The notes beneath the pieces are model-generated. The model made no database searches and was not told the origin of the DNA. It saw nothing but the letters and a program-made list of their open reading frames with translations. Positions 8,809 through 62,349 of a DNA stretch of 64,000 nucleotides are shown here, piece by piece. The translations under genes were made by a program, and so were the position numbers. Numbering within the stretch: position 1 is the first letter of the stretch; each line of letters starts with the position of its first letter. Where the stretch lies: assembly GCA_002118135.1 (NCBI GenBank), contig BDIU01000155.1, positions 248,001 through 312,000 of the forward strand, in the 5' to 3' direction. Source of the DNA: Trebouxia sp. TZW2008. Taxonomy: Eukaryota > Chlorophyta > Trebouxiophyceae > Trebouxiales > Trebouxiaceae.

Positions 8809-11800
8809 ATGCTGACGGAGTCTCCGGCCATCCGGACTGGGATTGAGCAGGTGCTTAAGCAAGACTCCGAACAGGTGTCATATGCGCTTGACACGCCCAA
8901 GTCATCTGGTACGAGTGCAGCGTTGACAACCTCTGCGCCAGTTGGAGTTCACTTCGTCCGCTTATAGTCTGCCGTGCTGGAGCAGGCGATAGCCCAGTAG
9001 TTTGCGTCACAGCCAGTGGAAACCGCCCATTCAGACAGCCAGGCACAGCAGCGTTTCACAGGCATAGATTGTACTACTGGGACGAGGTGCCTGCAGTATT
9101 GCAGTTCAATCCATACATCAAAAGTGGATACCGAGCTGGTGTGTTTGCTTGGCAAGCAGCTTGAAAGAATATGCTTGCTTGTACATTCTACTGTTGGCAA
9201 TGTTAGTCAATAGGTGATCAATCTTCTGCAGGCTTGAGCTGTCAGGAATGTGTAGGGACTCTGTTCCAGTATCATAATGAAACAGGTGAACATGCATGGC
9301 TGTTGCAATTTGCGCATTTGCTGGAAAGTCGTGTTTGACTTTTGCGCTGCTTCATCCAGATTGCATCTGCGACAATGCAGCTGAACGTGTTTTTGTACGC
9401 AAGCACGTGTTCATCAACCATTACATGCCAGCCCAACACATGCCCTGCATTTGCAGGTTCTGCAATTTCATTCCCAACAAAGAAGCATCTCGCCTGACCT
9501 GTGCATTGTGCAGGCACGTCTGGGTGCACCTGACCTCATTGCTAGCATGCATAGCCATAAGGGCGGTTCTTGACAACAGCAGCTCATCTCATCTGACCCA
9601 TTGCCTCATGCAGGCAACATCTGGGTGCACCTAATCTCACTGCTAGCATGCATAGCCATTGTAGCAGCAGGCATGGTGGCGCCTTGGCCCTTGGGTGGCG
9701 CTGCTCTACTGTCACTGCTGCTCCCAGTGATACTCTGCCTTGCTGGCTCGGTCACCTACCACACCATGATGGCCAATCACTGGAATTATAAGCTGTACAT
9801 CACCATGGATGTAAGCCTGACAGCCTTACGCTCATGTGTCTCATGCATGCAGCGTAGGCTTGATACTCGCACTCTTATACATGGTTTACATTTGAAACTA
9901 CAGAGACTATTTTGTTGACGCTCTGGAAGATGTTGCTGCACCTGCATATTGCAGAAGACTAAGTTGCTGAGACGCTCTGTGCATGCAGCTGTGCTGCCAT
10001 TGTGTGCTGGGCTGACATGCAATGCTTGTGTTCTGCTGCTGTCTCGTTTTGCTCAGGCACACAATGCTGCTTATCTGCTTGCTTGTGTGCTTCCGTTTCT
10101 GTCACAAGTGATCATGCTCGCTTTGCAGGTGTGCGGGGTGTTTGCGCTCTTCCTGACTGGTGCCCACAACTTCATCTGGATGGGACTGTACTGCTATCCC
10201 CGCCTGAGGAATGCAGCAGTCACAGCATACTTTCTCACAGCTGGCACGTGTGCCCTCATGGGTGTGACAGCCAAGAGCATTGCTAAGCGAGCTGTACCAA
10301 TGCTGGTGCTGCTGCTGCTGAGGTGCAGCATATTGCTGACAAGGGTGTATCTGAAAAGCGGCTCCTGGTGGGGCTCACTCAACTTCTGTTGGATGGAGGT
10401 GAGGCTTTTGGACTGTTGCATTTGTGCTGCTGAGAGTCGCATCAGTGCTGCCCTTCATGCTGAGAGATGCATCTGCGCTGCCACTTTGTGGCAGTGGCAA
10501 CAGTGTTGTCAGTTGCTTTTGTGCTGGTGGATGCAACAAGGCAAGCAGCATGGCCATAGTGACCTGCCAGCCACCATCTGGCTGGCATGCTTTTGCACCA
10601 TGCTGACTAGGCAGACAGCATGGCCATGACGGTCATTTGCAAATTGCACCTTTACATTTGCATGATTGCACAGCATGCAAGTACAGCAAACAGCACATCC
10701 ATAATGATCAGCCAAGATCTACACCTTTGACTTGCATAAATGTATAGCATGTGCGCTTGCACATTGGTGACATACCTACAGGCTTCCTTTTGCTTGCCAG
10801 CTGCATGATATTTCTGAGCTGAGCAGTTCCCAGCAGATGCTTGTCAGCACAGGGTCGCTAGCATAGTTCTGGGATGGTCTATGGCATGGAATGGTCTATG
10901 GCATGGACATTGGCCGGCCAGGGATGCCTCTTGTTGAATCTCATGTCTTCCATCTGTCAAGCGCACATGCGGACGATATCTGTTGTCATGCTAGCTTACT
11001 ACTAGGGCTGTTATGTACGCATACCGTGTACGGTACTCCGTATATACGCGTACATTGGCTCGTTGGCCGTGTATATACGCTGAAAACCATGCGTATCAAG
11101 GATGCGTACATAGTGCAGGTTTTGCCTCAACTATGGGCATTTCAGCCTGATTTCCATCGATTTTGGCCTTATTTCTGGGGATTTAGGCTATGCATAATGA
11201 TAGACATTGCATTGGGCGGTGCAATTTTCAGTAGATTTGCCCATAGAAGCAAAACAAATTTTGAAAAGTGGCTCACTGATGACTCATCGTCTCATGACAA
11301 ATAGGATTACGCAAGACACCATGAGTCACATGTAACGGTTGACTCATATTTGACTATGTATATCATGTTTTTGTGCGTTTGTGCACGCTGTATAAGCGTC
11401 CTTTCGGTGTCACGCCCTTTTTGGCCAAATGTGCGCAAAAATGGGCGTTTGTACGGATACATGCGTATTATACGCGTTATGCGTACAAAAACTCTCGGAA
11501 GAGTTATGTACATAACAGCCCTACTTACTACTGGGCTCAATGAGAGCGCTGGCCCATACAAAACAGTCTGTCTGCATGCAGGTACTGACATGCATTGGTG
11601 CAATTGTGAATGTCAAGCGCATACCTGAGAAGTGGTTCCATGTCAAAGACCCACGCACCCCTGGGAGGTTTGACTATTGGCTCAACTCCCACCAGATCAT
11701 GCACGTTCTTGTGGCCTGGGCCATGGCGCACTATGGTCTGGGAGCTACATTTGACTACATGCACTTTGCCAAAGAGACACAGTGCCCGGCGTGGGAGTTG

Positions 11801-11809
11801 GCGCTATAA
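8809..11809 (+). CDS. PAQR (AdipoR/haemolysin III) family seven-TM protein
   Basis: Integral membrane protein of the progestin/adipoQ receptor family, a group of putative zinc hydrolases (ceramidase-like) or receptors. Exons: 8809-8908 (join uncertain), 9013-9138, 9232-9285, 9614-9810, 10129-10398, 11582-11809; the sum is 975 nt, 324 residues, and phases agree. The N-terminal YYWDEVPAVLQFNPYIKSGY matches the PAQR entry motif, followed by HNETGNIWVHL. The conserved metal-site residues are visible: Ser/His in SVTYHTMM, an Asp in ITMDVCG, and the C-terminal pair in NSHQIMH. The RIPEKWF motif precedes the last helix. The region between exons 5 and 6 is a 1.18-kb intron carrying a MITE. The first exon could alternatively join at 8940/9039. 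Confidence 0.8.
9514..9570 (+). repeat. decoy copy of PAQR exon 4 start with acceptor
   Basis: The 5' end of the exon starting at 9614, together with its TGCAG acceptor, is duplicated exactly 100 bp upstream. The copy would encode HVWVHLTSLLACIAI against NIWVHLISLLACIAI in the real exon, then diverges. Use of the copy would lose the TM segment that follows. Confidence 0.8.
10869..10908. repeat. short direct duplication in PAQR intron
   Basis: A unit close to atggtctatggcatgga occurs twice in immediate tandem. Confidence 0.7.
11003..11523. mobile_element. hAT-like MITE, 521 bp, in PAQR intron 5
   Basis: The element begins TAGGGCTGTTATGTAC and ends with its exact reverse complement GTACATAACAGCCCTA, so the terminal inverted repeats match perfectly over 16 bp. 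It is flanked on both sides by the identical 8-bp target duplication CTTACTAC (10995-11002 and 11524-11531). An 8-bp duplication and a TIR of YAGGGCTG type are diagnostic of the hAT superfamily. Subterminal regions are rich in short motifs such as GCGTA and TACGC in both orientations, typical transposase binding arrays. There is no transposase frame, so it is non-autonomous. It lies wholly within an intron. Confidence 0.9.
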
Positions 11810-13174: not shown

Positions 13175-16100
13175 CTATTGCTTCTCTGCCAGCTTCTTCC
13201 GCAGCTCCGTTGAGGATATATCGTTTCTGAAGATGGATTCTGGAATAGATGAGAACAAGCCCTGCAATCAGCAATGATATTTTGAGCAACTTGTCAAGTA
13301 AACCATACACAGCGCATGCCACAGGTCCGGCGCAAGCACGCCATAAACACATGGCAGGTGAACAAGCAGCATTGCTGCCAGACACAGTTCAATTTAGTAA
13401 CACCAAGTACACGTCAGACCGAATGCGCTTGTAGATACAATGTAACATACCATGCTGCATGAATGCCAAGCAGCCCTTCATCACGTGAAAGAGACATTCT
13501 CATGTCTCCCAACCTGCAGGCAATGCATTCGGCTGAGGGCTCACAAGCTTTGTGATGACTTCAGGTACTTCGACGTCATCAAAAGTCTTGAACTGCTTGT
13601 TGCCTTGATCGTCTGTGACTACTCGCCCAGCAACAATGACTGAGCAGCCCTGATGACTCATGCTGGCCAGTGACAACAGCATGCCGTCATGCCCTCCATA
13701 GTATTTGGGCATCACTAGCCTGATGGTTGTGTCATATCCTATCACAAATGTGCTGTTGGGAAAGATCTGGGCTTTGTCTGGGTACAATGGGGCCTGCATG
13801 GAACAGAGCTATTGGCTATGATCATTGTTAATTCAAGGTCAGTTTGTTGCTGTTGATGCTGTGACAGCACACTGCAGATTGTGTCATAGCCTATCGCAAA
13901 GTGCTGTTTGGGAAGATCTGGGCTTTGTCTGGGTAAAAAGGAGCCTGCGCAGAGCACAGAACGAGGAAATAGACACAATCTTGCTCTGGCGACACAGCGT
14001 CAACAGCCTGACTCACATGACCAAAGTGACTGCTGGTTGTGTCGAATCCTATCACAAACAATCTGATTGGGAAGATTTGGGCTTGATCTGGGTGTAACGG
14101 GGCCTGCACTGCACAAGGCTGTCAGCAGTGGCTGTGTTGTGTTCATTGTTTCTTGTCATGCTGTGAGAGTACACTGATTGCATGACATAGAACAGAAGTG
14201 GTGTCTGCGGCTTGACACTGCTCGAAGTGCATTGCACCACCTCACCTTTGCTTTGCTGGTTGTCATCTGATGCTGACGGACATGATGTTTGACAACGCAA
14301 TTACGTCTACCAGAATCAGGCGACAGACGGCAAAGAAAAGCTTGCAGGTCAAGCCTACACATGCTGTCTGCCTGTGAAGAGCCCTGATTTCCAGAAGGGT
14401 AGCATCAGATCAAGGGTTCCAAAGCTGCACAGGATGCATGCCTTGCATGCAGCCTAAGTAGCATGTATTCTGCAATGGGTCAAGGGTTGCAGTATAAGTC
14501 ACGGGGAGGAGAGAGCCAGGTCAAGATAGTTGATAGAAGCCTTGCCTGTGTGAGCACCAATGGCAAGTTCTGATCAATGAAAGGCTGTAATCGCCTTTGG
14601 ATCTCTTCAATGGGCATCAAGCCCTTGTCAGCATTGCCAACTGACAACTCATAGCAGCCCTCCAATTGCTCTGCACACATACACAGCCTTGGAAGATCAA
14701 ATGTAGCACAGACCAAACGTTAGGCAGGTCAAGTGTTGTGCAGGCCAAGGGCTTTGCAGCCTAAACACCACATAGAAGCAGCTATAAAGCTGTGCGAGGG
14801 TGCACCAGTGTTGTGTTCATGCCAGGCTATAGTTGGCCTATTTTCTTGCAAAACATATGCTGAAAGTACCAGCTTTTGGCAGAAGGCCTCATAGCATGCC
14901 AGGTTGCTCAGGATGCTGTGGACTATCTCCATCCTTCTGCTGTGCTTGTATGGCAGCAGCTAGCATTCCCTGGTGACCTTGCAAAGGGTTGAGGCTGCTG
15001 GCCATGCAGACTTTGCCACCCCTGGGGGCATCAACAAAACATGAAAGACCTGCCTCCATTCTTCTGCCTTGCTTTTACGGCAGCAGCCAACATCCCCCCT
15101 TTGGCCCCTAGGCAAGGGTTTGATTTTCCTGGAAAGAGTGCATGCAGCAGCATAACATGAAAGCTTGCTTGGCCTGCATACTATGGCCTACCTCCATTCT
15201 TCTGCCTGGCTTACACGGCAGTAACCAATGTCCCCCTGTGACCTTCGTGCGAGGGATCAAAATTTCGTGCACAAAGCAAACAGCAGCATTGACCGCTGCT
15301 CTTCTGCCGTGCTTGTGTAGTAGCAGCTAGCATCCCCATGTGACCCTGAGGTGTTGTAAGTGTCTGAAAGGCAAACAGCAGCATGCAGTGACAGCTTGCT
15401 TAAGATGGGATGACCTACCTCCATCCTTCTGCCGTGCTTGTATGGCAGCAGCTAGCATTCCCTGGTGACCTTCATGCAAAGGGTTGAAGCTGCCTGCCAT
15501 CTTCTTGCCACCTTCAGGGGCATCAACAATGACATGGATGACCTACCTTCAGTTTCCTGACGTGCTTGTATGGCAACAGCTAGCATTGCATCAAGACTCA
15601 TTCTTCAGAATTTTTCAGGTTCGTACTTTCTGGGCAAAGCCAACAGCAGCATTTACCTCCATCCTTCTGTCTTGCTTGCATGGCAGCAGCTAGCATTCCC
15701 TGGTGTCCGTCATGCAAGGGATTGAAGCTGCCTGCCATGTAGACCTTGCCTCCCCTAGGGGCATCAACAATAACATTGCCATTGCTGTACTCCACTGTCC
15801 TGACTCTACCTGCTAGAAGCTCTTCCACAGGGTCTGCCATTTCTGTACATTCCTCCTGCACACCACCAACCTAATAGGTTTGCAAGTAGAAACATGCTTT
15901 GCAAATGGAGACACGATGCTAGTTGGTAGCCTTGCTGTGAAGTGGATCATCACAAATCAAACAAATAGCAGGTCTTGCGCTTCAGCTTGGCATCGAGTGA
16001 CTGCCACGATGTCTCGCTTTTGCAGCTCACGCTTCAGGATTACGCATCAGCAGTGTACGTCACATGCCTGCTTGGCAGCATGGTCCTTTTGAGCCACAAC

Positions 16101-18743
16101 ATATTGGCAAAGCAGGCACTGAGCTATTGATGTGGTGAAAGTCTGCCTCATTGCCACACAGCACAAGTTGGCATGCACTTAGCTTTCATGGGGTTGAAAC
16201 TAAACATTGAAAATGGATCGATCGATGATCTTCCTTTTGTTTGAATCAAGGCGAACAACCGCAGACATCTCAAAGTTCCTGTGTCCTATGTCTCAAGCTG
16301 TAACTGCACGGTTCCCAATGATGATCATTGGTCACGTTCGGCAGTGTCGATAGGGAAGAGCTTTTCAAGCTCCTCATTTTCCCAGCAGCAATGCAGACAC
16401 TGCACTTGAGTCAAAGCAGTACCTAGCACACCTGGACGTGCTCACTGCCGCTCACTAGCCCAAGCTCAGCATGACTGTCCTCAGGAAGACCAGAAGCAGC
16501 AGCCAAAGCGTTCAATAGCATCCTGCTGGCCACAGCGTCCTCTCCTAGGCGGTCTCTCTTGCCTTTGTCAAGCTTCAGGCTGTAGGAGAGGGTCTTCCTG
16601 CCTGTGTGGGCTGAAACATAAGCCTGCACAGCACATGAACAGTGAACATGGGTTGCCCATATATTGCAAAGGTTGTAGGTTCTTGAGCTTCAGGCTTTAG
16701 AAGAGAGTCCTCAAGCGTGTATGGGCTGAAGCATAAGACTGCAGGGTGTCCACACAGCAGTGAAATAAGAGACGAACAAGGCGTTGCCAGAGACAAGGCT
16801 GTAGGAGAGTGTCTTGCTGCTTGTGCAGCCTGCACAGCCCGTGCACAATCAACTGCATTGCTTGAGCATTGCAGCGCTGGCGCTTTGTCAACTTTCAAGT
16901 TGGAGGAGTGTGCCTTCCTGCCTGTGTAGGCTGAAACAAACGCCTGCAAGATCCATGCACGGTGAAAAGCTGACATGCAGTCAAAGCGTTCAATAGCATC
17001 CTGTTGACCTCAGCATCCTTGCCTGGGCGGTCCCTCTTGCTTCTCTCAAGCTTCAGGCTGTGAAAAAGGGACTCCCGCCTGTGTGGGCTGAAACATAAGC
17101 CTGCACAGCCCATGCAAAGTGCAAGTGAGACCTCAGGTCATTGCTAATCTTGCCGCTAGTGAGGCTGTAGGCACGCAGATTGCACCACTTGAGCCTTGTC
17201 AAGCTTTAGGCTATAGACAACTGTCTTCCTGCCTCTGTAGGCTGAAATGAAATCCTGCAGGCTGTTTGTTCAACCCATATGGGCAGACTCTGTCAGTCAT
17301 CAAGGCGCAGGTGCAGTCAATGCCAGTGAGTGAGGATCCCAATCGAGACAGCTGAGCGGCTTGCTGGTATGCAACCTTTGCCATGCTGTCTGCTGTGGCC
17401 TTGCTGGCATATTCAGAATTTTCACGCCACATACCTTGTGATTGCCTTTCTTGACTCTGCCTATCATCAAGGCGCAGGTGCAGCCAATGCGCCAATAATA
17501 TGAGAATCCAGCTGAGACAGCTGAGCAGAGAACATCATCAAGAGCTGTTGTGTACACTGCATGTGAGCAGTCTCTAAGCAACATACCCTGTGATCGCCTT
17601 TTTTGACTCTGTCCGTCATCAAGGCACAGGTGCAGCCAATGTCAATAAGTGAAGGACCCAGCTGAGACAGCTGAGCAGAGAACATGAACAGGACCTGTTG
17701 TCTACAGTACATGTGATCAGGCATTGAGCAACATGCCTTGTGATTGCCTTTCTTGACTCTGTCAGTCATCAAGGCCCAGGTGCAGCCAATGCCATTGAGT
17801 GAGGATCCCAATTGAGACAGCTGAGCGGCTTGCTGGTGTGCAACCTTTGCCATGCTGTCTGCTGTGGCCTTGCTGGCACATCCAGAAGTGCTGTGCAACA
17901 TACCTTGTGATCGCCTTTCTTGACTCTGTCTGTCATCAAGGCACAGGTGCAGCCAATGCCAATGATTGAGGATCCCAGCTGAGACAACTGAGCGGCTTTC
18001 TGATATGCAGCCTTTGCCATGCTGTCTGCTGTGGCCTTGCTTGCATATCCAGATGTGCTCTGATGCAATACGTCTTGTAAAGCAGACTGGGCGTATGGCA
18101 CACGAGACTCCAGCACGGTCCTTGAAGCACCAGGCACTGTGAGCAGCCATGTCAATGCCTGCAGGAAGATAGTTTTGAGTGCAGCAACCATTGGAGACTG
18201 ACTTTTTGCATCACGCCCCTTCTTGCATGCGAATGACACATGCTTGAAATATATATATTTATATATATATATATATGTGTTATTGTGGCAGTGGTGCCCT
18301 GTGATTTGAGCTCATACCTTGCTGGCATGACATTTGGCCTTGCTTGTTGCATCAAACAGACAGGGAATGGCTGCTCAGAAAACAAGTTGACGCTTGTGTA
18401 GTGTTATGATCACCTGCATGCCTCCACCAGTGGCATACAGAACAGCTTGGGGTGGACTGTCATGTATCTTCTTTATCAGAGCAGTCAAATTTGCATCCAT
18501 TGACGCGGCACGCAGGCTAGTGAATAGTCCTCGTCGCGGCGAGGGATGCTGTTGTCGTGAAGCTGTAGACAAGTCTGAAGTCTTGTGCGGTACTGCCAGC
18601 GCTTGCCGACGCCGCAAACTCTGTTTCCACAAGTTGCAACCAAGTTGTAGCTGAGACGTTTGAGAACAAGCACGCTGAGTGAGACTCGCAGCTGTGTTTG
18701 CCCAGCAACAGGCTTGATGCATGCAGACCGCAAGCCGGAGCAA
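13175..18743 (-). CDS. CinA-like + nucleotidylyltransferase fusion (NAD metabolism)
   Basis: Predicted two-domain enzyme of the uncharacterised plant/algal group that includes Arabidopsis At2g01220 and is related to yeast POF1. Exons (minus): 18500-18414, 18158-17904, 16623-16432, 15855-15657, 14670-14546, 13793-13545, 13261-13175; phases 0,0,0,1,0,0 agree and give 397 residues from Met at 18500. An in-frame Met at 18743 adds 81 residues rich in Arg/Ser and poor in acids, probably an organelle presequence. The N-terminal half resembles the CinA C-terminal (NMN deamidase) domain: YATGGGMQ, then ALTWLLTVPGAS, later GIGCTCALMTDR and GEDAVASRMLLNAL. The C-terminal half is a nucleotidylyltransferase: GSFNPLHDGH (HxGH site), VIGYDTTIRL, and NDISSTELRKKL (ISSTxxR). 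The intron after 14546 has a GC donor. Coupling of the two activities is inference. Confidence 0.8.
13944..14103 (-). repeat. two decoy copies of NMNAT exon 6 start
   Basis: The acceptor end and first about 60 bp of the exon starting at 13793 recur with copy starts at 13944 and 14103, i.e. units of 151 and 159 bp. The copies still read like APFYPDKAQIFPNS and retain AG at the acceptor. They continue upstream into duplicated intron sequence. Confidence 0.8.
14928..15600 (-). repeat. about six decoy copies of NMNAT exon 4 end
   Basis: The last part of the exon at 15855-15657, which encodes the nucleotide-binding GSFNPLHDGH region, is followed in the intron by degraded copies near 15547, 15418, 15290, 15188, 15054 and 14928. 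Most keep ctccatccttctgc..gcttg and a donor-like GTAGGT. The copies at 15418 and 14928 cover more than 100 bp of exon; the others are shorter and more diverged. Confidence 0.8.
16735..17262 (-). repeat. array of decoy copies of CinA exon 3 start
   Basis: Copies of the acceptor side of the exon starting at 16623 (AYVSAHTGRKTLSYSLKLDK) occur with apparent starts near 16737, 16828, 16943, 17100 and 17254. The copy at 17100 is the longest and reads close to the real exon for about 120 bp but with lesions. All keep a TGCAG- or TGCAG-like acceptor on the minus strand. Confidence 0.8.
17282..17893 (-). repeat. four decoy copies of CinA exon 2 end
   Basis: The 3' part of the exon 18158-17904 (SKATADSMAKAAYQKAAQLS through MTDRVKKGDHK) is repeated four more times, with donor-side edges near 17737, 17588, 17435 and a partial unit at 17282. 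Units are about 150-167 bp. Several copies keep long open frames and a donor (GTATGT), so they resemble true exons closely; only the first has the upstream VPGAS segment. Confidence 0.85.
18248..18279. repeat. AT microsatellite in intron 1 of the CinA-NMNAT gene
   Basis: Alternating A and T run of about 30 bp. Confidence 0.85.
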
Positions 18744-24411: not shown

Positions 24412-24525
24412 GTCTATCCTGCCCAACCTTTGGATTGATATTGATCGGGAACAGTACGAAATGCCGGGCACGTATGGCCAGCTGAAAAACCTAACCAACC
24501 CTGTTTCCCGGCGGCGCAGATCAGT

Positions 24526-24969: not shown

Positions 24970-25200
24970 TCACTGACCATGAACCCAAGACCTGCCATAG
25001 TCTTTTGCAATTGACTTCTGTGCGACGTTCATTGTGAAAGCAACTGATGACAAAGCAAGCCAACTGCCATGACCAGAGCAAGGAGGCATGTCTAAGGCAG
25101 CCTATCAGCACCTGCTGTTGAACCGTCTGCTGCTGCATCTGTGCAATCCGGGCATTGATGTTACCCACTTGCTTGAAAAGATCACTCATCCTATCATACA
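24970..25200 (-). repeat. decoy copy of docking-subunit exon 7 end
   Basis: The 3' half of exon 25452-25256 ([18 protein letters not shown]) recurs once downstream, reading DLFKQVGNINARIAQMQQQ. The donor position is mutated in the copy. Confidence 0.8.
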
Positions 25201-25255: not shown

Positions 25256-28200
25256 CTGAGTCGGCCTATCAGCACCTGCTGTTGGACTGTCAGCTGCTGC
25301 AGTTGCGCAATCTGGGCATTGATGTTGGCCACTTGGTTGAACAAATCGAAGTTGGCTGCTTCTGCATTGACATAGGCGTCCACCAGCTGAGATGTGCTGG
25401 CCAGGCCGCTTGCTTGCTGCATGCGCTGAAATTGCTCTTCGCATTCATTTTCCTGCAGTCCAACAGAACGATACAGGTTTCAGCTCATGTGTGCCACGTG
25501 GTTTTGTTCAGGGGCTGGCCATGCCGCTTGCTTGCTACATGCGCTGCAAATGCTCCTCACACTCTCTCTGGATTGACAACAGCTTGGTTGTCCTGGATAT
25601 AAATTTTTGGTCTGCGGCAAATGTGTGCAACACATACATGTTGCCATACTCACCTGGCACATGTGCTGGAGAGCATATAGATTGCTATTGTTGTTGTGAC
25701 ATGCTTGATGTATGGACTCATACTACTCTCAAAACTGAGTCTTCCTCAAAATAGCGAAAGGCATGCTGCCAGGTGAGTACGTACACAGCGCAGTGACGAT
25801 CCACAAGAGTTGATGACAACTCCAGAACAATGACATAGTTTCTTTCATCTGTGTATTGACTTCAGTAATCCTTTGCAGACAGAATATTGCATCTTGCCAG
25901 TGCTTGTCGCATTTACTTTGTTGTTTGTGTCTCTTGAGTCAGGTGGTGCATTATGTTTGAACAACGTGTAAGCGTTTCATGGATTCTGAGGTCTGTCAGC
26001 AACTCGCCTCGTCTGCTGTCCAGCTTGGCTCTGCCAGACTTGTAGGGCTGTTGGCAGCAGCCCCATTGACAGGGTCTGCGCCTGGCATAGCCCCAGCTAT
26101 TGAGCCATGCAGCTGCCACAGCTTCTCATCAGCTGCCATGAGCAGCTTTAGCTCATGCATCTGGCTGTCAAACGCCACCTGCGTGCATGGTTTGCTTTGT
26201 ATTGAGTTGTCATCACCAAATGCTGCTGACGCCATGCTGTTGAGTTAAGCGTCAGCACCCGCAAGGCTGCCGTTAGAGTGTGGCCAGCGAACTCAGTTGT
26301 GACAGCTGCCAACGTTGCCCGTAGCGTATCTTTGATAGCAATCAAGCATTGCATGCATCACTGTTATCTTGATTAGTTTTGAACATGACACTGACCATGG
26401 GTAACATCAACAGTTGCTGTAGACAGCTGCGAGCTTATTGAATCAGCAACAGGCATACGCCTGTGAACAGAGAGGCAACTGGTATACATCTGTAGGTAAA
26501 CTAGCAATAGGTACGCGCACGGACAGGCAGCCCTGTTCACCTGTTCTGAGTCACCTTGAGCTTTCAAGACTTCTGTCTCAGCTAAAGCATGCCTTTCTGC
26601 TGTCTGTGCCACCTCAATGCTACCCACCACAGCACTGACCTCTGCTGATGCAGTCTCAAGCTGCTCTGATAGCTTCTCATAGCTTGCATCATAACCAGAC
26701 CTCTCCCTCCTGCAGACCGGAAAACATGTATGTTACATGCTCTAGCACAAGCGCCAGGGGTGTGGGCATGCCGCTCTGCTGTCTGCGCCACCTCAGTGCT
26801 ACCCACCACAGCACTGACCTCTGCTGATGCAGTCTAGAGCTGCTCTGATAGCTTGTCATAGCTTGCATCATACACAGACCTCTCCCTCCTGCAAACAAGA
26901 ACACATGTATGTGCCATGCTGTAGCACAAGTGCCAGGTGTGCGCGCATGCCTTTCAGCTGTCTGTGCCACCTCAATGCTGCCCGGCACAGCACTGACCTC
27001 TGCTGATGCAGTCTCAAGCTGCTCTGATAGCTTGTCGTAGCTTGAGTTATGAACAGACCTCTCTCTCCTGCAACATTAACTCTAGCAGTCTGCAAGCTGC
27101 TGCAGTAGCCTGATGATTGATTGTGCCCGGGCAAATGCAAGGTACTAAGCAGTAGCCCATGAGCAGCCACAATGTCAATCTGCCAGATGTCTTAACGCTG
27201 TCAAGATCTTCTAGCATGTACAGCAAAACATGCATGTGACTGTCTTGCTGTGCCTTGACAAAAGCGCTGGTACAGGCTATCACAGGCTTTGTGCAAGCTT
27301 GATCAGCAAGTCACAGCAACTTGCCCTTGCTCTTGCAGGATGCTCATCTGCCAAAGCAAAACATGCGGCATGCAACAAATGCTGAAAGCGCTTGATGTAG
27401 TCAGAGCCTCAAAAGACCACAGCACGCTGAATGGCGCAGATGCAATGACGATAGCAAAAGTCAAGCCACGGGTACCTGAGTTCCTGAATTTCAGCCTGCA
27501 AGACTTTGCTGCGAGTGAGCAGGTTGTGGTAGTGCAGCAATGCCCTGTCAAGCCGGCTCTGCATTTGGCTGGCATTCAAGGCGTGCAATCGCACTGCCTG
27601 CTTTGGGGCATGTATGCCGCCCATGTGCATGCGAGTCTGCAGAGCCTGTGCATGGCCGCACGGACAACCTTATGCGTGGCAGTCAGAATACTGCATGCAT
27701 GCTCGTTACATTACATGTGCGTCTGCAAAGCCTAAGCATGCGCACGCAGACAAAGTGATGCAGAGTGATGGCTGCAAGCAATGGCATGCATGCATGATCA
27801 CATTCTTGCGTTGAGCAGGACTCAGAACACGCATTTGCACTGCAAGCTGTTCAAGTATGGACAAGCTGTGATTTTTGTACGCATTCACCGTTCTCTTGAG
27901 CTGAGATTTGAGCTTGACCAAATTGCTGCTTTTAGTGCAAAAGTTTGGTCATGGTGTGCAACATCACATGCCTAAGCAGCAGGATATGAGGCATTACCAC
28001 AGATCTACGCATCAAGAGACAAGCCTTGACAAGAAATCCTGCATGGAAAGCCTACCTTCTCTCGACATTGCCTGATTTGTGAATGCAACAACTCAACTTG
28101 CGTTTCCTCCTGTGCAACCTGGCAGGAAAGCAACCTGTCAGCGCGTGAGATGATGCATGGGAAAGTTTGCAGCTCTGCATACCTTTCTTGTAAAGGCATC

Positions 28201-43900: not shown

Positions 43901-46708
43901 AACCAGGCTGTGAATTGAGCGACTGCATGAGTGCCTGCGTGCTCACAAGACGTCAAGGTCCACGAGAACAAAAGCAGAGCCACTTGTTGTACATGCAGAT
44001 GAAGATGCAGGACCTGCTGAGGACTGACACCATGATCAAGGCCAAGAAGCATGATGCTGTCGCTCCTGATGATGTTGAAGTGGAGGAAGGGCCTCAGGGC
44101 AAGGCAGGACCAAGCAGCCCCTTGAAGGACGCTGATGAGGGCATTAGCAGTCCCTTGGTTGTGGGTAATGGCCCTGCTGCTGCAGGTAACAGCTCTGTTG
44201 AGTGTTATGCTTTTTTTGGAATATGGGAAGTGAACTTGCGCAGAATTTTGTAGCTTGGTCGACAGGTGCTGATGTAAATTCAGCAGCCTTCTCTCAGAAA
44301 TCAATACGGCCTGACAATGTGTTCCCATGTTGCACTCCGGCACGCTTTCTTGAGTCTTGTGAGTAGCGTGTCTCAAAATGCCAGCAGTCTCTTGGTTGAG
44401 GGCAATGCCCTGCCTTCGCAGTCCTGGAAGCCGTCTGTGGTGCTAACTTTTGCCCAACTTGCATGAAACAACAGCTGACTCAATGCTGCTGGAGTGCAAG
44501 TTGCGGCTACTGACTTAACTTGGCGCTGCAGTGAAAGAGGGAGCCGGTACTCTGCCAGCTGGTGCTGGCAGGCATCGGGCAAATAGTGCTGTGCAGCCCA
44601 GCTGTGGCACTGTTGTTCGCTGATCATTCAACAGCAACTGTACCACTGCAGTGAATGAGGGAGCTCATAGAGAATCTTGCTTCCCTGACTCTGGCCCTGA
44701 CGTTTGCTGACTTGCAGCATTAGCAACGGTGCTGGTGTTGACTTCTTGACATCTGAATGCAGTGAAAGAGGGACCTCAGTACTCTGGTGAGCAGTTGGTG
44801 CTGGCAGGCACAGGCCAAGCAGTCCTGCGTATCCCAGCTGTGGCGCTGATGTTTGCTGACACGCTGTACGGCGCGCCCACCCTGCTGCCGGAGCTGGTGA
44901 ATCGGTGGGGTGCTGTGCACAAGATCCTCATCATCCTCACTGTACGCCAGGTATGCCTTACTGCACGTCTTGGTGTTGAACTTGGTACACAATCCCTATC
45001 AGCCTCATTGTCTGGCAGGTATGGCTTTCTGGCGCCCACTTAACAGCTGCCTGCAAGGTATTGCGGCCTGCTGTTCCTGGACAACTGCTGTGGCATCATT
45101 TTGCTGCCCCTGCACTGAAAGGCCATCTGCTGTACATGTTGCTGCCCCTGCCCTGAACTGCCATTTGCTGCACATGAAATGCAAATGTTTATTGTTTCAA
45201 TGATTGCTTATCCAGTCAAAATAACATTGCTCTGGTGAAGCAGGTTGTTGTAATTGCAGTTGCCTCGTGTGAAAAGGAACATCCTTGAATGTGATACGAG
45301 GCATGTTGCATTGAGGAGCTGCCAAGTCAAAGCTTCCCCAATGCACGGATGCAGGTGCCAGTGAGCACTGTGACAGATTCTGAGAGGCTGCTGTTCCGCA
45401 AGCTGCACTACCCCGGCATCTACCGCTGTGTCGCTCGCTACGGCTACCATGACCAGGTGCACATGGGCAGCAAGTTTGTCATCAAGCTACTTGACAAGGT
45501 GAAATCACACAGCGCCTGTTGCTCCCGACAACATGTTGCAGAAGCCCAAATCAGGGCATGGTCCACACAAAGCAACTGAGTCTGGCAATAATCCAGACTT
45601 GCCTGATGCTCTTGCCTTCCTGGCAGCAGTTTTGCGTGTGGCTGGAGTTGGCAAGCTCAAACATGGACAGCTTCTTGTGTCAGCATGTCTTGAAAGTGTC
45701 AACATGCATGGCTTCAATGTGTCCTCGATTGCACTTTGTGCAATCCCTGATGACTCAGGTTATCACCTTTTGTCTCAGTAAGACTTCAATTGCAACTTGC
45801 AGCGCCGATGATGTGTAAATTGTGCAAGTGGATCTGAGCACAGCACCCATCCTGGAGCAAGCCAACAGCATGATTGTGTCCTACATTGTGTACTTCGTAA
45901 TCAGTACTGTTTTATCTTGGCTTAGCATGTCTTGATCATGTGCAGATTGTTGAGGTGGACCCAAGCACAGCACCCATTGTGGAGCAAGCCAACAGCGTGA
46001 ATGTGTCCTACATGTTGTCCTTCACATGCAGCAATGTTTTTATCTTCTCTGAGCATGCTGCTCATGTGCAGATTGTTGAGGTGGACCCCAGCACAGCACC
46101 AATTGTGGAGCAGGCCAACAGTGTGAACATATCCTGCGTTGTGTTCTTCACGAACAGTACTGTCTTCATCTTGGCTCAGCATACTGATCATGTGCAGATT
46201 GTTGAGGTGGATCCAAGCACAGGACCCATTGTGGAGCAAGCCAACAGCGTGAATGTGTCCTACATTTTGTACTTCAGAATCAGTACTGTCTTATCTTGTC
46301 TTAGCATGCTGCTCATGTGCAGATTGTTGAGGTGGACCCAAGCACAGCACCAATCGTGGAGCAGGCCAACAGCGTGATCATATCCTACATTGTGTTCTTC
46401 ACAAACAGTACTGTCTTTATCTTGGCTTAGCATATCCTGATCATGTGCAGATTGTTGAGGTGGACCCAAGCACAGCACCCATTGTGGAGCAAGCCAACAG
46501 CATGAACGTGTCCTACATTGTCTCCTTCATCAAGATGTTTGCCAAGCCTGGGGCTAGGGGCGGGGTGAAGGGCATTAAGGGGGGCTTCCGCCGTTTCTGC
46601 CTTGAGTACTTGTATGGCAACATGGGCAGATTCGCTCGCAAGAGCTGGGAGGATTGGAGCATCCCTCATGGCAGCCTGTTTGAGATTGGTGTTGCCATGG
46701 ATGTCTGA
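37941..46708 (+). CDS. HAK/KUP/KT potassium transporter, 16 exons
   Basis: K+ uptake carrier of the plasma membrane or vacuole. Exons: 37941-38021, 38464-38689, 38956-39058, 39397-39611, 39901-40070, 40379-40469, 40601-40653, 40921-41055, 41421-41555, 42126-42231, 42631-42768, 43294-43418, 43999-44185, 44763-44950, 45355-45498, 46451-46708. All phases agree; the sum is 2355 nt, 784 residues, the normal family length. The family signature [19 protein letters not shown] is in exon 2. Others: [95 protein letters not shown], and the cytosolic [14 protein letters not shown]. The end of exon 1 could be 38015 instead of 38021. Four exons have decoy copies in flanking introns. Confidence 0.92.
41650..41702 (+). 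repeat. decoy copy of KUP exon 9 end with donor
   Basis: Repeats the last about 50 bp of exon 41421-41555 ([15 protein letters not shown]) 147 bp downstream, with donor GTAAAG instead of GTAAGC. Confidence 0.85.
42780..42995 (+). repeat. tandem repeat in KUP intron 11
   Basis: About three units of 70-90 bp share ttgactgcatt, gagcat.ttgtgcctgtgcc and gtctgc. They follow the donor of exon 11 directly. Confidence 0.6.
44375..44425 (+). repeat. decoy copy of KUP exon 13 end
   Basis: Diverged copy of the Ser/Gly-rich end of exon 43999-44185 (agtctcttggttgagggcaatg). The donor is not preserved. Confidence 0.6.
44532..44715 (+). repeat. two decoy copies of KUP exon 14 start
   Basis: Starts at 44532 and 44652 precede the real start 44763 by 231 and 111 bp. 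Each keeps a TGCAG acceptor followed by tgaaagaggga or tgaatgaggga. The first copy covers about 95 bp of exon, the second is shorter. Confidence 0.85.
45827..46450 (+). repeat. five decoy copies of the KUP terminal exon start
   Basis: Copies begin near 45827 (damaged), 45946, 46072, 46198 and 46323, and the real exon at 46451. Spacing is 126, 126, 125 and 128 bp. Four copies have an intact GTGCAG acceptor and about 90 bp of exon ([20 protein letters not shown]), then intron sequence that runs to the next acceptor. Copies 2-4 remain in one open frame. Confidence 0.95.
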
Positions 46709-51753: not shown

Positions 51754-54700
51754 ATGAGCCCCTCGCAAGGGGAAGAGCGGGGTTTGCTGGAAAGTGCAGA
51801 GGACGGAACTACCGGTCGCAGGACCACGACGGACGCCTCAGAACTTTCTGCCTTTCAGCTTGCTGTGAGTGCCCCAGGCGCTCAAGACCGCTCACTTTTG
51901 GCACAGTCTTGCTTATACGCATCGCACTTATTGTCCACATGGGGGGAACGCATGTGGGAGTTCGCCGTCGGTCTGACCATGCTAGAGATGTACCCTTCCT
52001 CCTTGGCGCTAGTCTCCGCGTTTGGGCTCGTTGACGGGCTTGCTAAGGTGCTGTCTGGGTCATTCATGGGGGCGTTCGTCGACAGGTAAGCTTCACGTTG
52101 TCTGCGATTCATCCATGCTCAGATAACACAGTCAGTTTGACCTGTAGGTCTTGAGCTCTGCCCACCACTTGACCTTGGCCACAACTATATTATCTGAAGA
52201 ATTTTCAGAGTGCAGCTGAACTGCCTCAATCCTTTCCTGTTCTTCCTAGGAATGACCGCATGAAGGCAGCATGCAGCATGTACATCCTTCAAAATGCAGC
52301 TGTAGCAGTGTTGGCCCTGACTGCATGGGTTAGTCTCAAGTCATCTCAGGGATCCACTTTGTTCTGGATTGGAGCAGTAAGCACAATTGCCAGCGGAAGC
52401 ATCAGCAGTGTTGGGTCTCAAGGATCCATGCTCTCAGTCGAAAAGGAATGGACAACAGCCCTTTGTGGTTCAGACTCCGCAGCTTTGGCCAAATTCAATT
52501 CAGGTATAGAGCTTCCTTGAGAAAGGATCAGCCCAATGTTGATATTTGTCCTTTTTTGATGCTTGCCTGGGTCACTGCATGCACAGATGTACACCCATCA
52601 CACAGCATCACCGCAAAGCGTTTGTAAGGCAAAGGCAAAGCATAAAGGCATGCAATGAGCCAAGTTTTCAGGTTACGCACAGCACCTGCACCTGCATCAG
52701 CCTTTAAACAAAACAAACACAGAGTCACCAGTGTCAAGGCAGCTTGCCTGTTCCAGTGTCTTTGACAAGTCAGCAAGCCCATCACAGCAGAGGTTGTGCC
52801 AATGCAGGCATGAGCGTAATTGACCCAACATGCCTGCTGCAATGTCCCACAGCCACCTAGACTTATCCTAACAGCTTGCGTCACAGCATTTGCAACAAGT
52901 ACACAAGGCTATGTGAGCAGAGTTTGTGGCATTGCAGGCATGAGGGCAATTGACCTGACGTGCCTGCTGCTAGCACCCATAGCCACCGGCTTCCTGATGA
53001 CGTACACCAGTCCCTTGACTGCAGTCCTGGCCATTGCTGCCTGGAACATGGCAGCCTGGGCGCCAGAGTGTTACCTGCTACTGTGCGCTCGCAATGCTTC
53101 TGCCGCCCTTAGGTCTGCAGGTTGGCACCCATGAATGTTGACATGCTGTGCTTCAGCCATGCCCTGCTCTGTGTTTGCATCTCGTGCTTCAGCCATGCCT
53201 TGCTTTGTTGCTGCTTGGAGTGTAGCAGCCTTGGCACCAGAGTGCTACCTGCTGCTGTGTGCTCGCAATGCTTCTGCAGCCCTTAGGTCTGCATGTTCGT
53301 CCTCATGAATGTGTGCACGCCCTGCTCTGTGTAAGCATCTCATGCCTCAATCGTGCCCTGCTTTGTAGCTGCATACGCTACAAGACGCGCCACACATGTT
53401 CACAAGGCACTGAATGTATGTGACCTGAATCAGGCAGATATTTGCAAAGCAGTGTTTGCCATGTTGGTGCGCAGATCATGCATTGCATGAAGGCTTCTCC
53501 TGTGCTGCATCATAGCTTCTCACAAGGCCCAACACAAATGCAGCTGCTGCAATTCAGGGTCAGATGTACAAAATGGTTTAGGGTTTAGGGTTTTGAAGTA
53601 TTGTCTCACAAATCCAGGCTTAAATGCAGATGCTGGGGTGTAGGATCAGACACACAAATCTGCCTTTGACATGCTCTTTGTTGATGGTGCAGAGCACCCA
53701 AGGAGCCGCCTGCAAAGAGCAAACCTGCTGCTACTGGAGCGTTCAGGCTGAAAGCCCTGAAGCAAGGCAGCTGGGGCATTTACTTCAAGCAGAGGTTGTG
53801 GCCAGCAGCATTTGCGCTAGGCCTGCTGTACCTGACAGTGCTGTCGCTAGGATTGCTGATGACAGCCTATCTGAAGTGGCAAGGCATGACTGAAGCTGAG
53901 CTGAGCCTGTATCGAGGGGCTGGGGCTGTTTCAGGGCTGCTGTCCACATTGGTCTTCCCTTCCCTGCACCATGCTGCAGGTGACACCCTCCTGAGCCAAA
54001 GCTATTGACAATGATCTACATTACCATTGACAAGGCATAAAGCATTTAGGGTCTAGGGTTTAGGTAGATAATTCTGTAAACATTGCAATGAGCTTAGACG
54101 TCTGTGTTGAATGTCGGTCAAGCTTCTGTGCTATTCAATTCACATGCAACTTCAATCAGGCATTTAGCAAGTGTTACAAGTATACAGTTTGTCATGTATC
54201 AAGGTTGCAGGATGAGTTGCAAAATTGTCCCAAGTAGGCACTTGGCAATGCTTGTGCAGGCGCATCAAGTGACACGACGGCAGTAAGATGTGCACTGCTT
54301 TGCTATGTCCGCTCAGCACCCTGCCTAGGCATACAAACCACTCAGACTGTCTCTGCATGTGAGTCCACCGGCTGTGATGTGCAAGCATGACACCAATGGC
54401 AATCAGACATGAAGCACACAGCCTTCACTCGTTGCAGGGCTGAAAACAACAGGGCTTGTTGGCATTTGGTGGCAGACAATCTCACTGGCTGTGGCTGTTT
54501 TGCCAGTATGGTTGGGTCAGCTGGGTGCTCGCCTGCCTGCAGCTACAATCTCGCATGTGCTGCTAGGCGGGCTGGTGGCTTCACGCTTTGGCCTGTGGCT
54601 GTTTGACCTGAGTGTGTCTCAGATGCTGCAAGAGTGGATCCCTGATGAAGATATAGGTGAGCATGCAAAAAAAATACAACAAACATGATTTGATGGCATT

Positions 54701-58477: not shown

Positions 58478-61400
58478 TCAGGGGGAACAAATGAGTTCGT
58501 GATACGCTACACCCTGCTTCAATCTAACTGCGCTAGAGCTAAGCAAATCCAACTTCGTCCCTGCTTCATTGCCCAGATGCAAACACAATGCTTGCATTGG
58601 ACCCAGCCTCCCTGACATTTTGACACTCGTCAGCTGCTGACACCAATGGCCGCCTGTGCTTTTGCTTGCAGCTATAGAGACACCCCTTGCATTGTCTTGA
58701 GCCACGACGACGCCAATATTGCTGAAGACATGAACAACACTGCTCAGCACTCTCACATGAGCCGCAGGGACTTTTATCTCAACGCCCAGCTGAAGAAAGA
58801 CTGCTGGTGATTGCTGTTGCGTTACCAGCAGGACCAGACAAAGCTGTGCCATTAGTTGTACCATTGGCTGTGGGAACAGGTCCATCAGGACCAGGCAAGG
58901 GTGCACCATTTGCAGCTGTTGCTGGTGTGTTGGCTCGCACTGGAAGAATGTTGAGACTGGGTTGACCAGCAGCAGAGGCAGTGGACCCCTCAGAGGTGAT
59001 GGGGGGTGCGACCCCTACGGAGCTGGGGTCATTGCCAGCAGCCGTCTCTGGTGTAATGATGGCACCTGCCAATGCACACAAAATCAAGTCAGCAGTGGCT
59101 GTTGGTGTGCTTGCTTGCACTGGTAAGGTGTTGAGACTGGGTTGACCAGCAGCAGTGACAGTGGACCCCTCAGAGGTGATCGGGCGTGCAGCCCTCAGGG
59201 AGCTGGGGTCATTGCCAGCAGCAGTCTCTGGTGTGATAGTGACACCTGCGATGCACACTAGGTCAACAGCCCATACAAATTTGAGAGTCACTGCCTGTGC
59301 ATCGCTTGAACCTATCAGTGGCAGCTCAGTGGTCAACCCAGCACAGTTTAGGGCGATCTCACCAAGTTCAGGCTCAGCTGCAATCAGCTCAATAATTGAT
59401 GTTTATAGCCACTTGCATGTGAAATCACAGTATGCTGTCAAAGGCAAGATCCAGGGATGTTGCTATTGCACCTGTCCGACTATGGAGACAAGCCAGGGTT
59501 GCCAGCTAGCAGGGTGACTCCTGCCAGACCATAAGGCAATCGTCAAGAGCAGGCCTGACCCGTCAGCCTGACAAAATTGCACCATCATATCACGTGCAGG
59601 TCAATGGAAATGAAGATATATTCACCTTGGGCAAACACAGGCTTTACTTCTGCAGATTGTGGTGCAGGCGCCAGAAACAAGCCAAGACTTTGACTCAGAC
59701 AGGCAAGACCATTGCATCAGATGCAGAACAAAGAGTCAAAATTGTTATTCTCCTGACAAGATTTGACACCTACCTGGGGCAAAAACAGGCTTGACTTCTC
59801 CAGATTGGGGTGCAGGGGCTAAAGACAAGCCTGGGTTGCCAGCCAGGAAGGTGCAGCCATCCTGGTAACGTGTCTTGTGGTAGTAGCTGTAGTAGGTGGA
59901 ATTGATCACAGGGCACAGTGTAGGGTTGGGGTTGGTGCAAGGGGGGGCTGGGGGTGCTGGGGGTGCAGGTGGGGCGGGAGGGGGGTCACTTGCTGGCGGG
60001 GGCTCCTGCACAAGCATTGACATCAGACATCTGTGTTGACAGTTCACAAGCAATGCACAGCATCATGCATGACTACATAGAGTCAGCTCTTGAAGGGCAA
60101 TGCGACAAGATGTTGCACACAGCACACTTTGCCTGGCACATCACACATGCTTGAGACAGCCCAACACGTGCAACTGTTTTGGCACTCAACAACTACTGCT
60201 ACACCAATAAATGATAACAACACTCGCTGCTACAACAACAGCATTCACCACTCTAGTATGAACAGTCACTGCCCAAGACTGCCCAAGACTGTTACGTATT
60301 CAATGTGACAGGATGATCAAACAGGGCTTGATGGTTATGCAAACTCCAAGCGCTGTATGCATCATGAAAGCGCGGGGGAGCTTACTGGGCACTGGATGGT
60401 GTAGTTGCTGGGGCAGCCCTTCAGAAAGCAGTTCTTGTCAACGGGGCTGTAGGCAAATGCTGAGCAGCCTGGGGCTGTTTCACAGGCCACCATGCAGTCA
60501 GAGGGACTGTGTACTGGAGCTACATTGCCAATGCCACTCTGCACCAACAGACACAGTCATTGTTCAGGACTCAAGAACAGTTTGTTTCATGCTTCCAAAG
60601 ATGCAGTTGGAGTGATTGTATACTGGAGCCACATTGCCAATGCCCATCTGCATGCACAGCAACACTACTGTCAGACATCCCAGCAGAAGGCACACAAGCA
60701 AACACCCTGTGGTGCTGGTGTCTGTAGAGACTTTACAGCAACACTGTCAATGCCAGGACAGGAGGTGACACACTCACAAAGATCTGGTCACATATTCAGG
60801 CGCTATGGCATTCACAGCAGGGCTCGGACTGCTTTGCATGCTTTACACTGTGACAAGCAGCCAGAGCACATTGCCAGTTGCTGTGCTGTATTGGCTGTGA
60901 AGCCATACTGGTTGCGTAAGGGTGCGGTGATAGGCAGACCCTGGGTCGTCTAGGGGGTAAGCCACATCACAGATGAGGGGTCCCTGGATGGCTTCAGTCA
61001 CACACTCAGACAATGCTAACAGCAGGTTTTGGGGTTCTTGGTATGCTGTACGTTTTGACAAGCAGTCACTGCACACTGCTAGTAGGGTGCTCAGTTCGCC
61101 ATGGAGTCTTACTGCTTGTGTAAGTGTGGGGTCATAGGCAGAGCCTGGGGCGTCCAGGGGGTAAGCCACATCACAAATGAGGGGTCCTTGTGTGGCTTCA
61201 GTCACATACTCAGATGCCAGGGCATTCACAGCAGGGCTAGGACTGCAGCTGGTGACGCCGTCTCCTGTGTACCCTAGCCAGCATTGGCATTGGAAGCCGC
61301 CTGCAATGCATGCAAAACATCTTCTGGGCAATGGTTTTGACAGTAGTTCCTGCATAGCACGATGGTCAGGAATGTCGCTGCTTATATGATTGTCAGGGCA

Positions 61401-62349
61401 AACAATTTGTGCATGGCATGGCGCAGCTGCTTGTTTGCACGCTGCATCTTGACTGCAAGGGCATGGATTTGAGCGCATCTGACAGCAGACATTCATGCTC
61501 ATATAATCTTGAATGGTCGTCCAGCAGAACACAGGAGCGAGTTGCAGCAAACAAGTGTGCTGCTTGCTTGCTGGACAACAAATAAAGTGGCATGTCCTGC
61601 TTACTGTAAGTGCACATATCTTGTGCTTTTTGTAACACTTGTACAGCGTCGGCTTGCTGGCTTTAAGGCATAACAATACAAAAATCGCAATTTTAAGCAT
61701 GAAGAAGCAGTTTAAACAAAAATTGTATGCAAAGCATTGCAAAGCATAAATTTGAAATTCATCAAGGACATACCTTGAGTGTTGATGCAAGCAGCATCCT
61801 GTGCGCAGTTGTCAGTGCCACGCACACACTCATTGATGTCAATGTTGCATGTTGGCCCTTCAAACCTGCAGGCATCACAAATCAACTTGCTGATGCTCAC
61901 AAGAACAGATGGCCCAATGCAAGTGTTTGCATTTCTGTGCATAATGCTATCTCTGCAGCCATGGTGTATTGTTGGCTTGTATCAAAAAGCTTTTGTACTA
62001 CGATCTGGGCCTGAGTGCTCAACAAACATGAAACATGCTGTAGTCAATGAGCGAGTCAAACCCTTTGTGAAGACCTATTTGCTGTGAGTATTTAGCTGAG
62101 GCCTCCAACTGTTGCACATTCATTCATACAATTGATGGCCGGATTGCCCCAGATGCAAAACGCCCCTTGTAAGCCATCCCTCCCGTACAAGCAACTGTAG
62201 CAGTTGCATGCATGGGCCATACAGTTTGAAGAAGGTGTCCTGCATCTAGTACAAAGCGCCCAAGTGCTACTTGATGACAGCATAGCTGCATGACCACAAG
62301 CAGGCTCGTCCAAAAGTGCAGCATGACTCAGTGCCCTTGTCTTCATCAA
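58478..62349 (-). CDS. secreted multidomain EGF/PAN-domain protein (partial model)
   Basis: Putative extracellular or cell-wall protein. Recognised exons (minus, N to C): a Cys-rich exon about 62240-62100 (SSNCMAHACNCYSCLYG); 61865-61774 with a calcium-binding EGF start DINECVRGTDNCAQDAACIN; 61300-61113 with the EGF end CQCWLGYTGDGVTSC and a block AVNALASEYVTEATQGPL; 60538-60386, a PAN/apple-like domain (SPSDCMVACETAPGCSAFAY); 60005-59774, a proline linker (PPPAPPAPPAPPAPP) and CTFLAGNPGL; and 59065 downward, a Ser/Thr/Pro-rich tail. A further frame at 58807-58478 may be the last exon. Domain choice suggests adhesion or matrix; pherophorin-like linkers are common in green algae. The N-terminal exon and signal peptide were not found. 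Confidence 0.6.
59090..59245 (-). repeat. decoy or alternative copy of tail exon, 180-bp unit
   Basis: GVTITPETAAGNDPSS.. from 59245 matches GAIITPETAAGNDPSS.. from 59065, exactly 180 bp apart, each preceded by a cag acceptor. The two stay in the same open frame. Confidence 0.85.
59475..59710 (-). repeat. decoy copies of the proline-linker exon end
   Basis: Two partial copies (near 59625-59690 and 59475-59515) of the segment encoding AGNPGLSLAPAPQSGEVKP lie downstream of the real exon end at 59774. Confidence 0.7.
60600..60660 (-). repeat. decoy copy of PAN exon start
   Basis: Repeats the acceptor (TGCAG) and first about 50 bp of the exon at 60538, reading MGIGNVAPVYNHSNC against SGIGNVAPVHSPSDC. 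Two conserved features are altered. Confidence 0.8.
60910..61010 (-). repeat. decoy copy of EGF exon end
   Basis: Repeats VTEATQGPLICDVAYPLDAP from exon 61300-61113 as VTEAIQGPLICDVAYPLDDP about 210 bp downstream. Confidence 0.85.

What the first reader, a model, noticed from the sequence alone, without database searches (positions are those of the whole stretch)
9514..62349. Introns built from outward tandem copies of exon ends with their splice sites
In at least seven genes (PAQR, CinA-NMNAT, dynein docking subunit, FAR, KUP, ferroportin, EGF/PAN) the intron next to an exon contains tandem copies of that exon's end plus the splice site. Upstream copies keep acceptor + exon start; downstream copies keep exon end + donor; only one copy is a full exon. 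I count about 17 affected exon ends and over 35 copies, at graded stages of decay. This is the geometry expected when a tandem duplication spans one exon-intron border, so no special machinery is required, but the frequency is far above anything ordinary and suggests a high ongoing rate, intron growth by this route, and many decoy splice sites.
Basis: partly seen in the sequence, partly recalled or inferred. Interest (0 to 1): 0.88.

Follow-up and report, generated by a model that had tools for sequence, protein, structure and literature searches.

The report
Introns filled with exon-edge copies
In this lichen alga (Trebouxia), short stretches of DNA that straddle an exon edge have been duplicated side by side again and again, so that many introns contain decaying, apparently unused copies of the neighbouring exon's end together with its splice site.

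Summary
The organism is a Trebouxia. Copies are outward only: exon-end + donor downstream, acceptor + exon-start upstream; 0 of 50 wrong-way tests. It is not a peculiarity of the window: 17 of 116 intron-facing ends in 14 genes elsewhere carry copies, and 234 kb of genome hold 75 direct against 3 inverted local repeat arrays, 0 in a random-sequence control. Copies decay without coding constraint (frameshifts, splice dinucleotides lost at about the background rate); the true exon is conserved. Best explanation: ordinary short tandem duplications, median period 146 bp, crossing one exon border; the message is unchanged if the outermost sites are used, so they persist and lengthen introns. Not supported: a high ongoing rate (3 of 75 arrays reach 95% identity). 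No special machinery is required, though border placement is mildly above random (27 of 34 arrays, P=0.018 after a rough detection correction) and intron flanks fit only if mid-size indels are common. Comparison with other algae and RNA use of decoys were not testable. A dense variant of known internal gene duplication.

The parts
9486..9558 (+). PAQR gene: upstream copy of acceptor + exon start (true block 9585-9659, exon start about 9614)
   Evidence: block 82.7%; exon part 0.91 over 43 nt; HlyIII match of the true exon (E 2.9e-4)
17904..18164 (-). CinA-NMNAT exon 1, the full copy
   Evidence: tblastn with P0121, residues 1-87, 83%
17286..17889 (-). four downstream copies of exon 1 end + donor (17734-17889, 17587-17679, 17435-17488, 17286-17417)
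16432..16623 (-). CinA-NMNAT exon 2, the full copy
16686..17247 (-). five upstream copies of acceptor + exon 2 start (17196-17247, 17046-17100, 16884-16938, 16796-16825, 16686-16737); the one at 16796 lacks its first bases
   Evidence: two also by tblastn
15657..15855 (-). CinA-NMNAT exon 3 (NMNAT start), the full copy
14927..15587 (-). six downstream copies of exon 3 end + donor
   Evidence: five by tblastn
13545..13793 (-). CinA-NMNAT exon 5, the full copy
13886..14103 (-). two upstream copies of acceptor + exon 5 start
25256..25452 (-). ODAD1 exon, the full copy
   Evidence: ODAD1_CC profile hit, splice sites
25514..25564 (-). upstream copy of acceptor + ODAD1 exon start
   Evidence: (86%)
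25052..25183 (-). downstream copy of ODAD1 exon end; donor GT lost
   Evidence: (80%)
26587..27073 (-). same gene by position: exon start (26587-26714) with two upstream copies (26766-26894, 26945-27073), period 179
   Evidence: (88-91%); exon assigned by splice signals only
31412..31622 (-). FAR exon (NAD_binding_4), the full copy
   Evidence: splice sites read
31206..31260 (-). downstream copy of FAR exon end + donor; its 55 exon bases are identical to the true exon
31647..31783 (-). upstream copy of acceptor + FAR exon start
   Evidence: (78%)
41421..41555 (+). KUP exon, the full copy
41653..41706 (+). downstream copy of KUP exon end + donor
   Evidence: 0.88 over 50 nt
44532..44624 (+). 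upstream copy of acceptor + start of the KUP exon at about 44763-44962 (a second short copy near 44650 seen by eye, not counted)
   Evidence: 79%; residues 605-627
45819..46400 (+). five upstream copies of acceptor + start of the last KUP exon, period about 126
46448..46705 (+). last KUP exon, the full copy
   Evidence: residues 645-730 of P0004
52765..52857 (+). upstream copy of acceptor + start of a ferroportin exon (profile core 52934-53101)
53208..53372 (+). downstream copy of the same ferroportin exon's end + donor
60601..60652 (-). upstream copy of acceptor + start of the PAN-domain exon (true block 60492-60543)

Best explanation
Short tandem duplications (unit mostly 60-300 bp, median 146) have occurred repeatedly and at many places in this Trebouxia genome. 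A duplication lying wholly inside an exon changes the protein and is lost. One lying inside an intron is neutral and soon unrecognisable. One that straddles a border leaves the message unchanged as long as the outermost donor and acceptor are used, so it persists: the extra exon edge and its splice site become intron, decay neutrally, may be re-duplicated into arrays, and lengthen the intron. Shown: outward geometry, direct orientation, locality, presence in unrelated genes, decay of copies without coding constraint next to a conserved true exon. Inferred: that the outermost sites are the ones used in RNA, and the replication or repair origin of the duplications.
For: Direct only: 50 direct and 0 inverted pairs in the window; 75 direct and 3 inverted arrays in 234 kb, 0 in the Markov-1 control. 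Outward only: 18 of 134 ends with copies in the expected intron, 0 of 50 in the wrong-way intron, 0 in shuffles. Independent genes: CCT, KUP paralogues and kinesins mapped by Pfam profiles; 11 of 15 genes have at least one array. One full copy and partial decoys confirmed with relatives' proteins. Decay: exon-copy mismatches by codon position 110:89:214, 31 of 32 indels frameshifting; copy-copy mismatches 135:121:170; sites where the exon differs from all copies 4:2:14, so the exon is the constrained one. GT kept 16 of 23, AG 15 of 18, near what the copies' average identity (0.87 per base) predicts. Intron-side flanks fit a neutral tandem-duplication simulation with mid-size indels (26 ends, median P 0.59, 1 below 0.05).
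Against: If intron indels are only small (mean 3 nt), flanks are more diverged than the exon part allows (KS P 3e-6, best copy per end, n=26); with mid-size indels at 5-10% of the substitution rate the fit is marginal (KS 0.035 and 0.09; for the 16 single-copy ends 0.002 and 0.011). All 16 repeat pairs of at least 88% identity in the fetched sequence are blocks shorter than 0.85 of their spacing rather than full tandems, though some are higher-order lags within full arrays. Young copies are scarce. Arrays are clustered by region (variance/mean 1.78, P=0.015).
Confidence: 0.78

Rival explanations
1. The copies arise by duplication, but their exon part is then refreshed from the true exon by short-range gene conversion or template switching, or the copying event itself takes only exon sequence plus the splice signal. 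Exon parts would therefore look younger than the intron flanks of the same copy.
For: Flank homology to the true site is weak: donor side 0.32 versus 0.26 background at offsets 11-20; the FAR downstream copy is identical over its 55 exon bases while its flank is not; flanks too diverged under small-indel models.
Against: With mid-size indels at 0.2 of the substitution rate and identical detection the discrepancy disappears. Mismatches are not clustered into tracts (43 alignments, mean permutation P 0.50, none below 0.05). The best flank partner lies within 10 nt of the copy lag in 11 of 23 ends by my reading, several of them with weak scores. Several arrays have homologous flanks (KUP last exon, ODAD1-gene array, CinA exon 1).
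Confidence: 0.1
2. The copies are kept for a function, for example as decoy splice sites that regulate splicing or as alternative exon edges.
For: Splice dinucleotides survive in many copies (16 of 23 GT, 15 of 18 AG); one relative's KUP is annotated as variant 2 (P0001).
Against: Copy-copy mismatches show only a mild third-position excess (135:121:170), 31 of 32 indels shift the frame, and GT/AG are not kept clearly above the background identity. Most exon ends have no copy (116 of 134).
Confidence: 0.06
3. Whole-exon duplications (tandem or mutually exclusive exons) of which one copy has degenerated.
For: Direct adjacent copies of exon sequence.
Against: Copies keep the end facing the intron; 0 of 50 wrong-way tests positive; no full second exon in the relatives-guided maps of two genes.
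Confidence: 0.03
4. Assembly artefact: repeated segments written twice by the assembler.
For: The genome is in 527 contigs and the reads are not available.
Against: Artefactual duplicates would be near-identical; 72 of 75 arrays are below 95% identity, and the same geometry recurs on many contigs.
Confidence: 0.02

Closest known systems
Internal gene duplication in eukaryotes (Gao and Lynch 2009, PNAS)
   Same: Direct duplication of a segment inside a gene, often including exon-intron borders, proposed as common and as a source of new introns
   Different: Paper not held; from recall only, 8-17% of genes carry such duplications in six genomes. Here 11 of 15 profile-mapped genes do, mostly across single borders and often in arrays; the methods are not matched, so this is a lead, not a measured excess.
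[quoted passage not shown] potato RdRp case, PMC4974935, passages read)
   Same: In potato, a tandem duplication of an intron-exon structure carried the 3' splice site, putative branch site and exon part, the same kind of unit as the upstream copies here
   Different: There the duplication created a new spliced intron and an inserted exon segment; here the copies sit inside an intron and, where relatives' proteins were used, the exon set is unchanged.
Introners (PMC9860276, start of the abstract seen in the listings)
   Same: Mass addition of intron DNA across a genome
   Different: Introners are an element that copies itself into many genes; here each copy is specific to its neighbouring exon.

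Membership tests
Internal (intragenic) tandem duplication | Direct, adjacent copies of a segment within one gene | tested here: met
Internal (intragenic) tandem duplication | The duplicated unit is contiguous across the border, so intron bases are duplicated too | tested here: inconclusive
   Clear for some arrays, weak for most; compatible with the model only if mid-size indels are common
[quoted passage not shown]
Introner / transposable element | Many similar copies at unrelated loci | tested here: not met
   Only 1 of 51 repeat pairs in the window is more than 4 kb apart; copies match the adjacent exon. The whole genome was not scanned for each copy.
Tandem or mutually exclusive exon duplication | Extra copies are full exons with both splice sites | tested here: not met
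   0 of 50 wrong-way tests
Alternative splicing decoys with function | Copied sites are used in RNA or conserved above background | tested here: inconclusive
   No clear excess conservation of GT/AG; no RNA data available

The most novel reading that the evidence does not exclude
Trebouxia carries a lineage-specific mutational process that makes tandem duplications of about one nucleosome or Okazaki-fragment length (median 146 bp), biased towards exon borders, with exon-derived sequence a major and directly datable source of its intron DNA; the exon part of the copies may also be refreshed from the true exon.
Probability: 0.15. Interest if true: 0.78.

Novelty: new variant of a known kind. Interest (0 to 1): 0.52.

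Why it matters
Where intron sequence comes from and why intron lengths differ are open questions. Here intron DNA carries its own pedigree: each decayed exon edge can be aligned to the conserved exon, which gives a clock, a neutral mutation spectrum and a natural test of how the spliceosome ignores near-identical splice sites a hundred bases away. It also warns that gene predictors in this alga will meet many false exon edges.

Tried and rejected
1. Flank anomaly. I first found that intron-side flanks of copies were far more diverged than expected (23 of 23 ends, idealised simulation) and considered gene conversion or exon-only copying. Simulations matched on exon identity, with the same detection and with mid-size indels, removed it; the result depends on the indel rate. 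I do not claim it. Those simulations model the donor-side geometry and were applied to both sides.

2. Coding constraint on the copies: rejected on codon-position and indel evidence. I read the third-position excess as synonymous change in the true exon.

3. Conversion tracts: no clustering of mismatches.

4. Codon-usage gene finding: bias too weak to be useful. Exon-by-exon Pfam scans were insensitive for some genes.

5. Literature: the listings (15 of 81 papers listed; no paper; 1; 4) show no title describing this pattern in Trebouxia; I did not read beyond what follows. Trebouxia A48 genome paper (PMC12712428), passages only: repeat content 12.72%, 'tandem' 0 occurrences, 'intron' 1. PMC3443670, passages. 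PMC4974935, passages. The Okazaki/nucleosome search was seen as a listing only.

6. In one search four KUP junctions were set by hand and three were off by 1-11 nt; they were corrected in the script. The affected ends of that gene did not change.
Full report
WHAT IS THERE. The window lies in contig C150 (248001-312000) of a 68.5 Mb assembly in 527 contigs. The organism is a Trebouxia: the hand-spliced KUP protein matches Trebouxia sp. C0004 at 86% over its whole length, and P0002-P0006, from other Trebouxia, at 73-85% over 88-100%. Within 64 kb there are 50 direct repeat pairs less than 4 kb apart, no inverted pair, and one pair further apart.

THE SEVEN GENES. The clearest case is CinA-NMNAT on the minus strand. 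With four relatives' proteins as queries (P0121-P0124) each of six exons is found once in full (P0123 and P0124 show a further one upstream); exons 1, 2, 3 and 5 also have partial copies. Downstream copies run to the last residues of their exon (one of exon 1's stops six residues short); upstream copies lie in the first part of theirs. The intron between exons 1 and 2 (1280 nt) holds four copies of exon 1's end and then five copies of exon 2's start, spread over most of its length. The last KUP exon has five upstream copies of residues 645/646-671/672 of a relative's protein, followed by the full exon, 645-730. One FAR, one ferroportin and one ODAD1 exon are copied at both ends. In all I count 16 ends and about 34 copies, 15 ends of them on a homology-supported exon; this tally is mine.

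NOT A WINDOW PECULIARITY. Splice sites were set by frame, profile continuity and consensus; 67 introns were kept as reliable, four of them set by hand. Of their 134 intron-facing exon ends, 18 carry a copy (11 donor side, 7 acceptor side), in 15 of 67 introns. Shuffled introns gave none, and searching exon ends in the wrong intron gave 0 of 50. Outside the window this is 17 of 116 ends. Genes differ: a kinesin on C79 has seven arrays, four of 15 genes have none.

BACKGROUND OF TANDEM DUPLICATION. Seventeen 10-kb stretches taken at one fixed position from contigs spread over the assembly (20 asked, three contigs too short) plus the window, 234 kb, hold 75 direct arrays against 3 inverted, and none in a Markov-1 control; array spans cover 13% of bases. 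Median period is 146 bp, interquartile range 116-173. Arrays are unevenly spread (variance/mean 1.78, P 0.015). Identity of the shortest-period pair, some of them under 40 nt long, is at least 95% in 3, 90-95% in 6, 85-90% in 11, 80-85% in 26, 75-80% in 20 and lower in 9. With steady input and neutral decay young copies should be commoner, so either input has slowed, identical copies are lost quickly, or the assembly collapses them. I cannot tell which.

HOW THE COPIES EVOLVE. One search found 44 copies at 23 of 141 ends examined (the 134 above plus seven in CinA-NMNAT and PAQR, two genes taken up because they were known to carry copies). In 38 exon-copy alignments (2944 sites; PAQR and five copies that did not re-align were left out) mismatches at codon positions 1, 2, 3 are 110, 89, 214, and 31 of 32 indels shift the frame. 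Between copies of the same end the counts are 135, 121, 170, and sites where the exon differs from all copies are 4, 2, 14. So copies decay without coding constraint and the true exon keeps its protein. At the projected site GT remains in 16 of 23 donor copies and AG in 15 of 18 acceptor copies, about what 0.87 identity per base predicts: neither clearly purged nor kept.

WHY OUTWARD. A duplicated unit that covers exon end plus donor yields exon edge, donor, exon edge, donor. The message stays the same only if the first donor is used; for an acceptor, only if the last is used. A unit inside an exon alters the protein. Polarity thus follows from selection on the message, without machinery. In 15 genes 27 of 34 arrays touch an exon border and 7 are intron-only. 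Random placement of a 146-bp unit predicts 44%; allowing exon-anchored copies twice the detectable lifetime gives 61% (my estimate); 27 of 34 exceeds this at P 0.018. A modest real bias to borders is possible; so is an underestimate of the detection bias.

A RESULT THAT DID NOT HOLD. Intron-side flanks of the copies looked too diverged for their exon parts, which would have pointed to gene conversion or to copying of exon sequence only. When simulated duplications went through the same detection and were matched on exon identity, the flanks fitted if mid-size indels occur at 0.2 of the substitution rate (26 ends, 1 below P 0.05), were marginal at 0.05-0.1 and did not fit with small indels only. 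For this comparison I took the best-fitting copy at each end, which favours the ordinary model; single-copy ends alone fit less well. The true indel spectrum is unknown, so this stays open.

WHAT IT IS. It works like internal gene duplication and the border-spanning tandem duplication known from potato (PMC4974935, passages), and by its tested features is a member of that kind. What sets it apart is density and order: several exon ends per gene, arrays of up to six copies, outward only in every test made. Whether this exceeds other algae was not testable; no other eukaryotic genome was available.

One search added an ODAD1 exon copied at both ends and showed that the ODAD1 profile hit lies 1.1 kb from the 26.6-kb array; one search tied the affected PAQR exon itself to HlyIII.

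Noticed in passing
13178-18500: A CinA C-terminal domain fused to an NMNAT-like cytidylyltransferase in one gene of about 380 aa; homologues of similar length occur in several green algae, in a Chloroflexi MAG and in many unnamed proteins.
   Followed up: no
36246-36341: Hexanucleotide repeat GAACAT, about 16 copies.
   Followed up: no
21914-21985 and 30886-30956: The only repeat pair in the window more than 4 kb apart: 72 bp at 81% identity, 9 kb apart.
   Followed up: no
57505-57585, minus strand: Start of a possible undecaprenyl-diphosphate-synthase-like prenyltransferase domain (E 8.5e-5, 22.6 bits, below the curated cut-off).
   Followed up: no
62453-63968: Dense field of weakly similar direct repeats (about 71-80% identity) with several periods; not tied to an exon.
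   Followed up: no
KUP genes on C151 (L034), C217 (L035), C156 (L033) of G000: KUP paralogues differ sharply in load: C151 and C217 have six and four arrays, C156 none.
   Followed up: partly
P0001 (Trebouxia sp. C0004): This KUP model, named variant 2, matches the window only up to the exon at 45352-45498 and shows no match to the last exon that follows the five-copy intron; possibly alternative splicing or a prediction error at such an intron.
   Followed up: no
C288:10943-11674 of G000: The second ferroportin gene gives three overlapping profile hits (231-277, 228-277, 237-301), which looks like upstream copies of an exon start.
   Followed up: no
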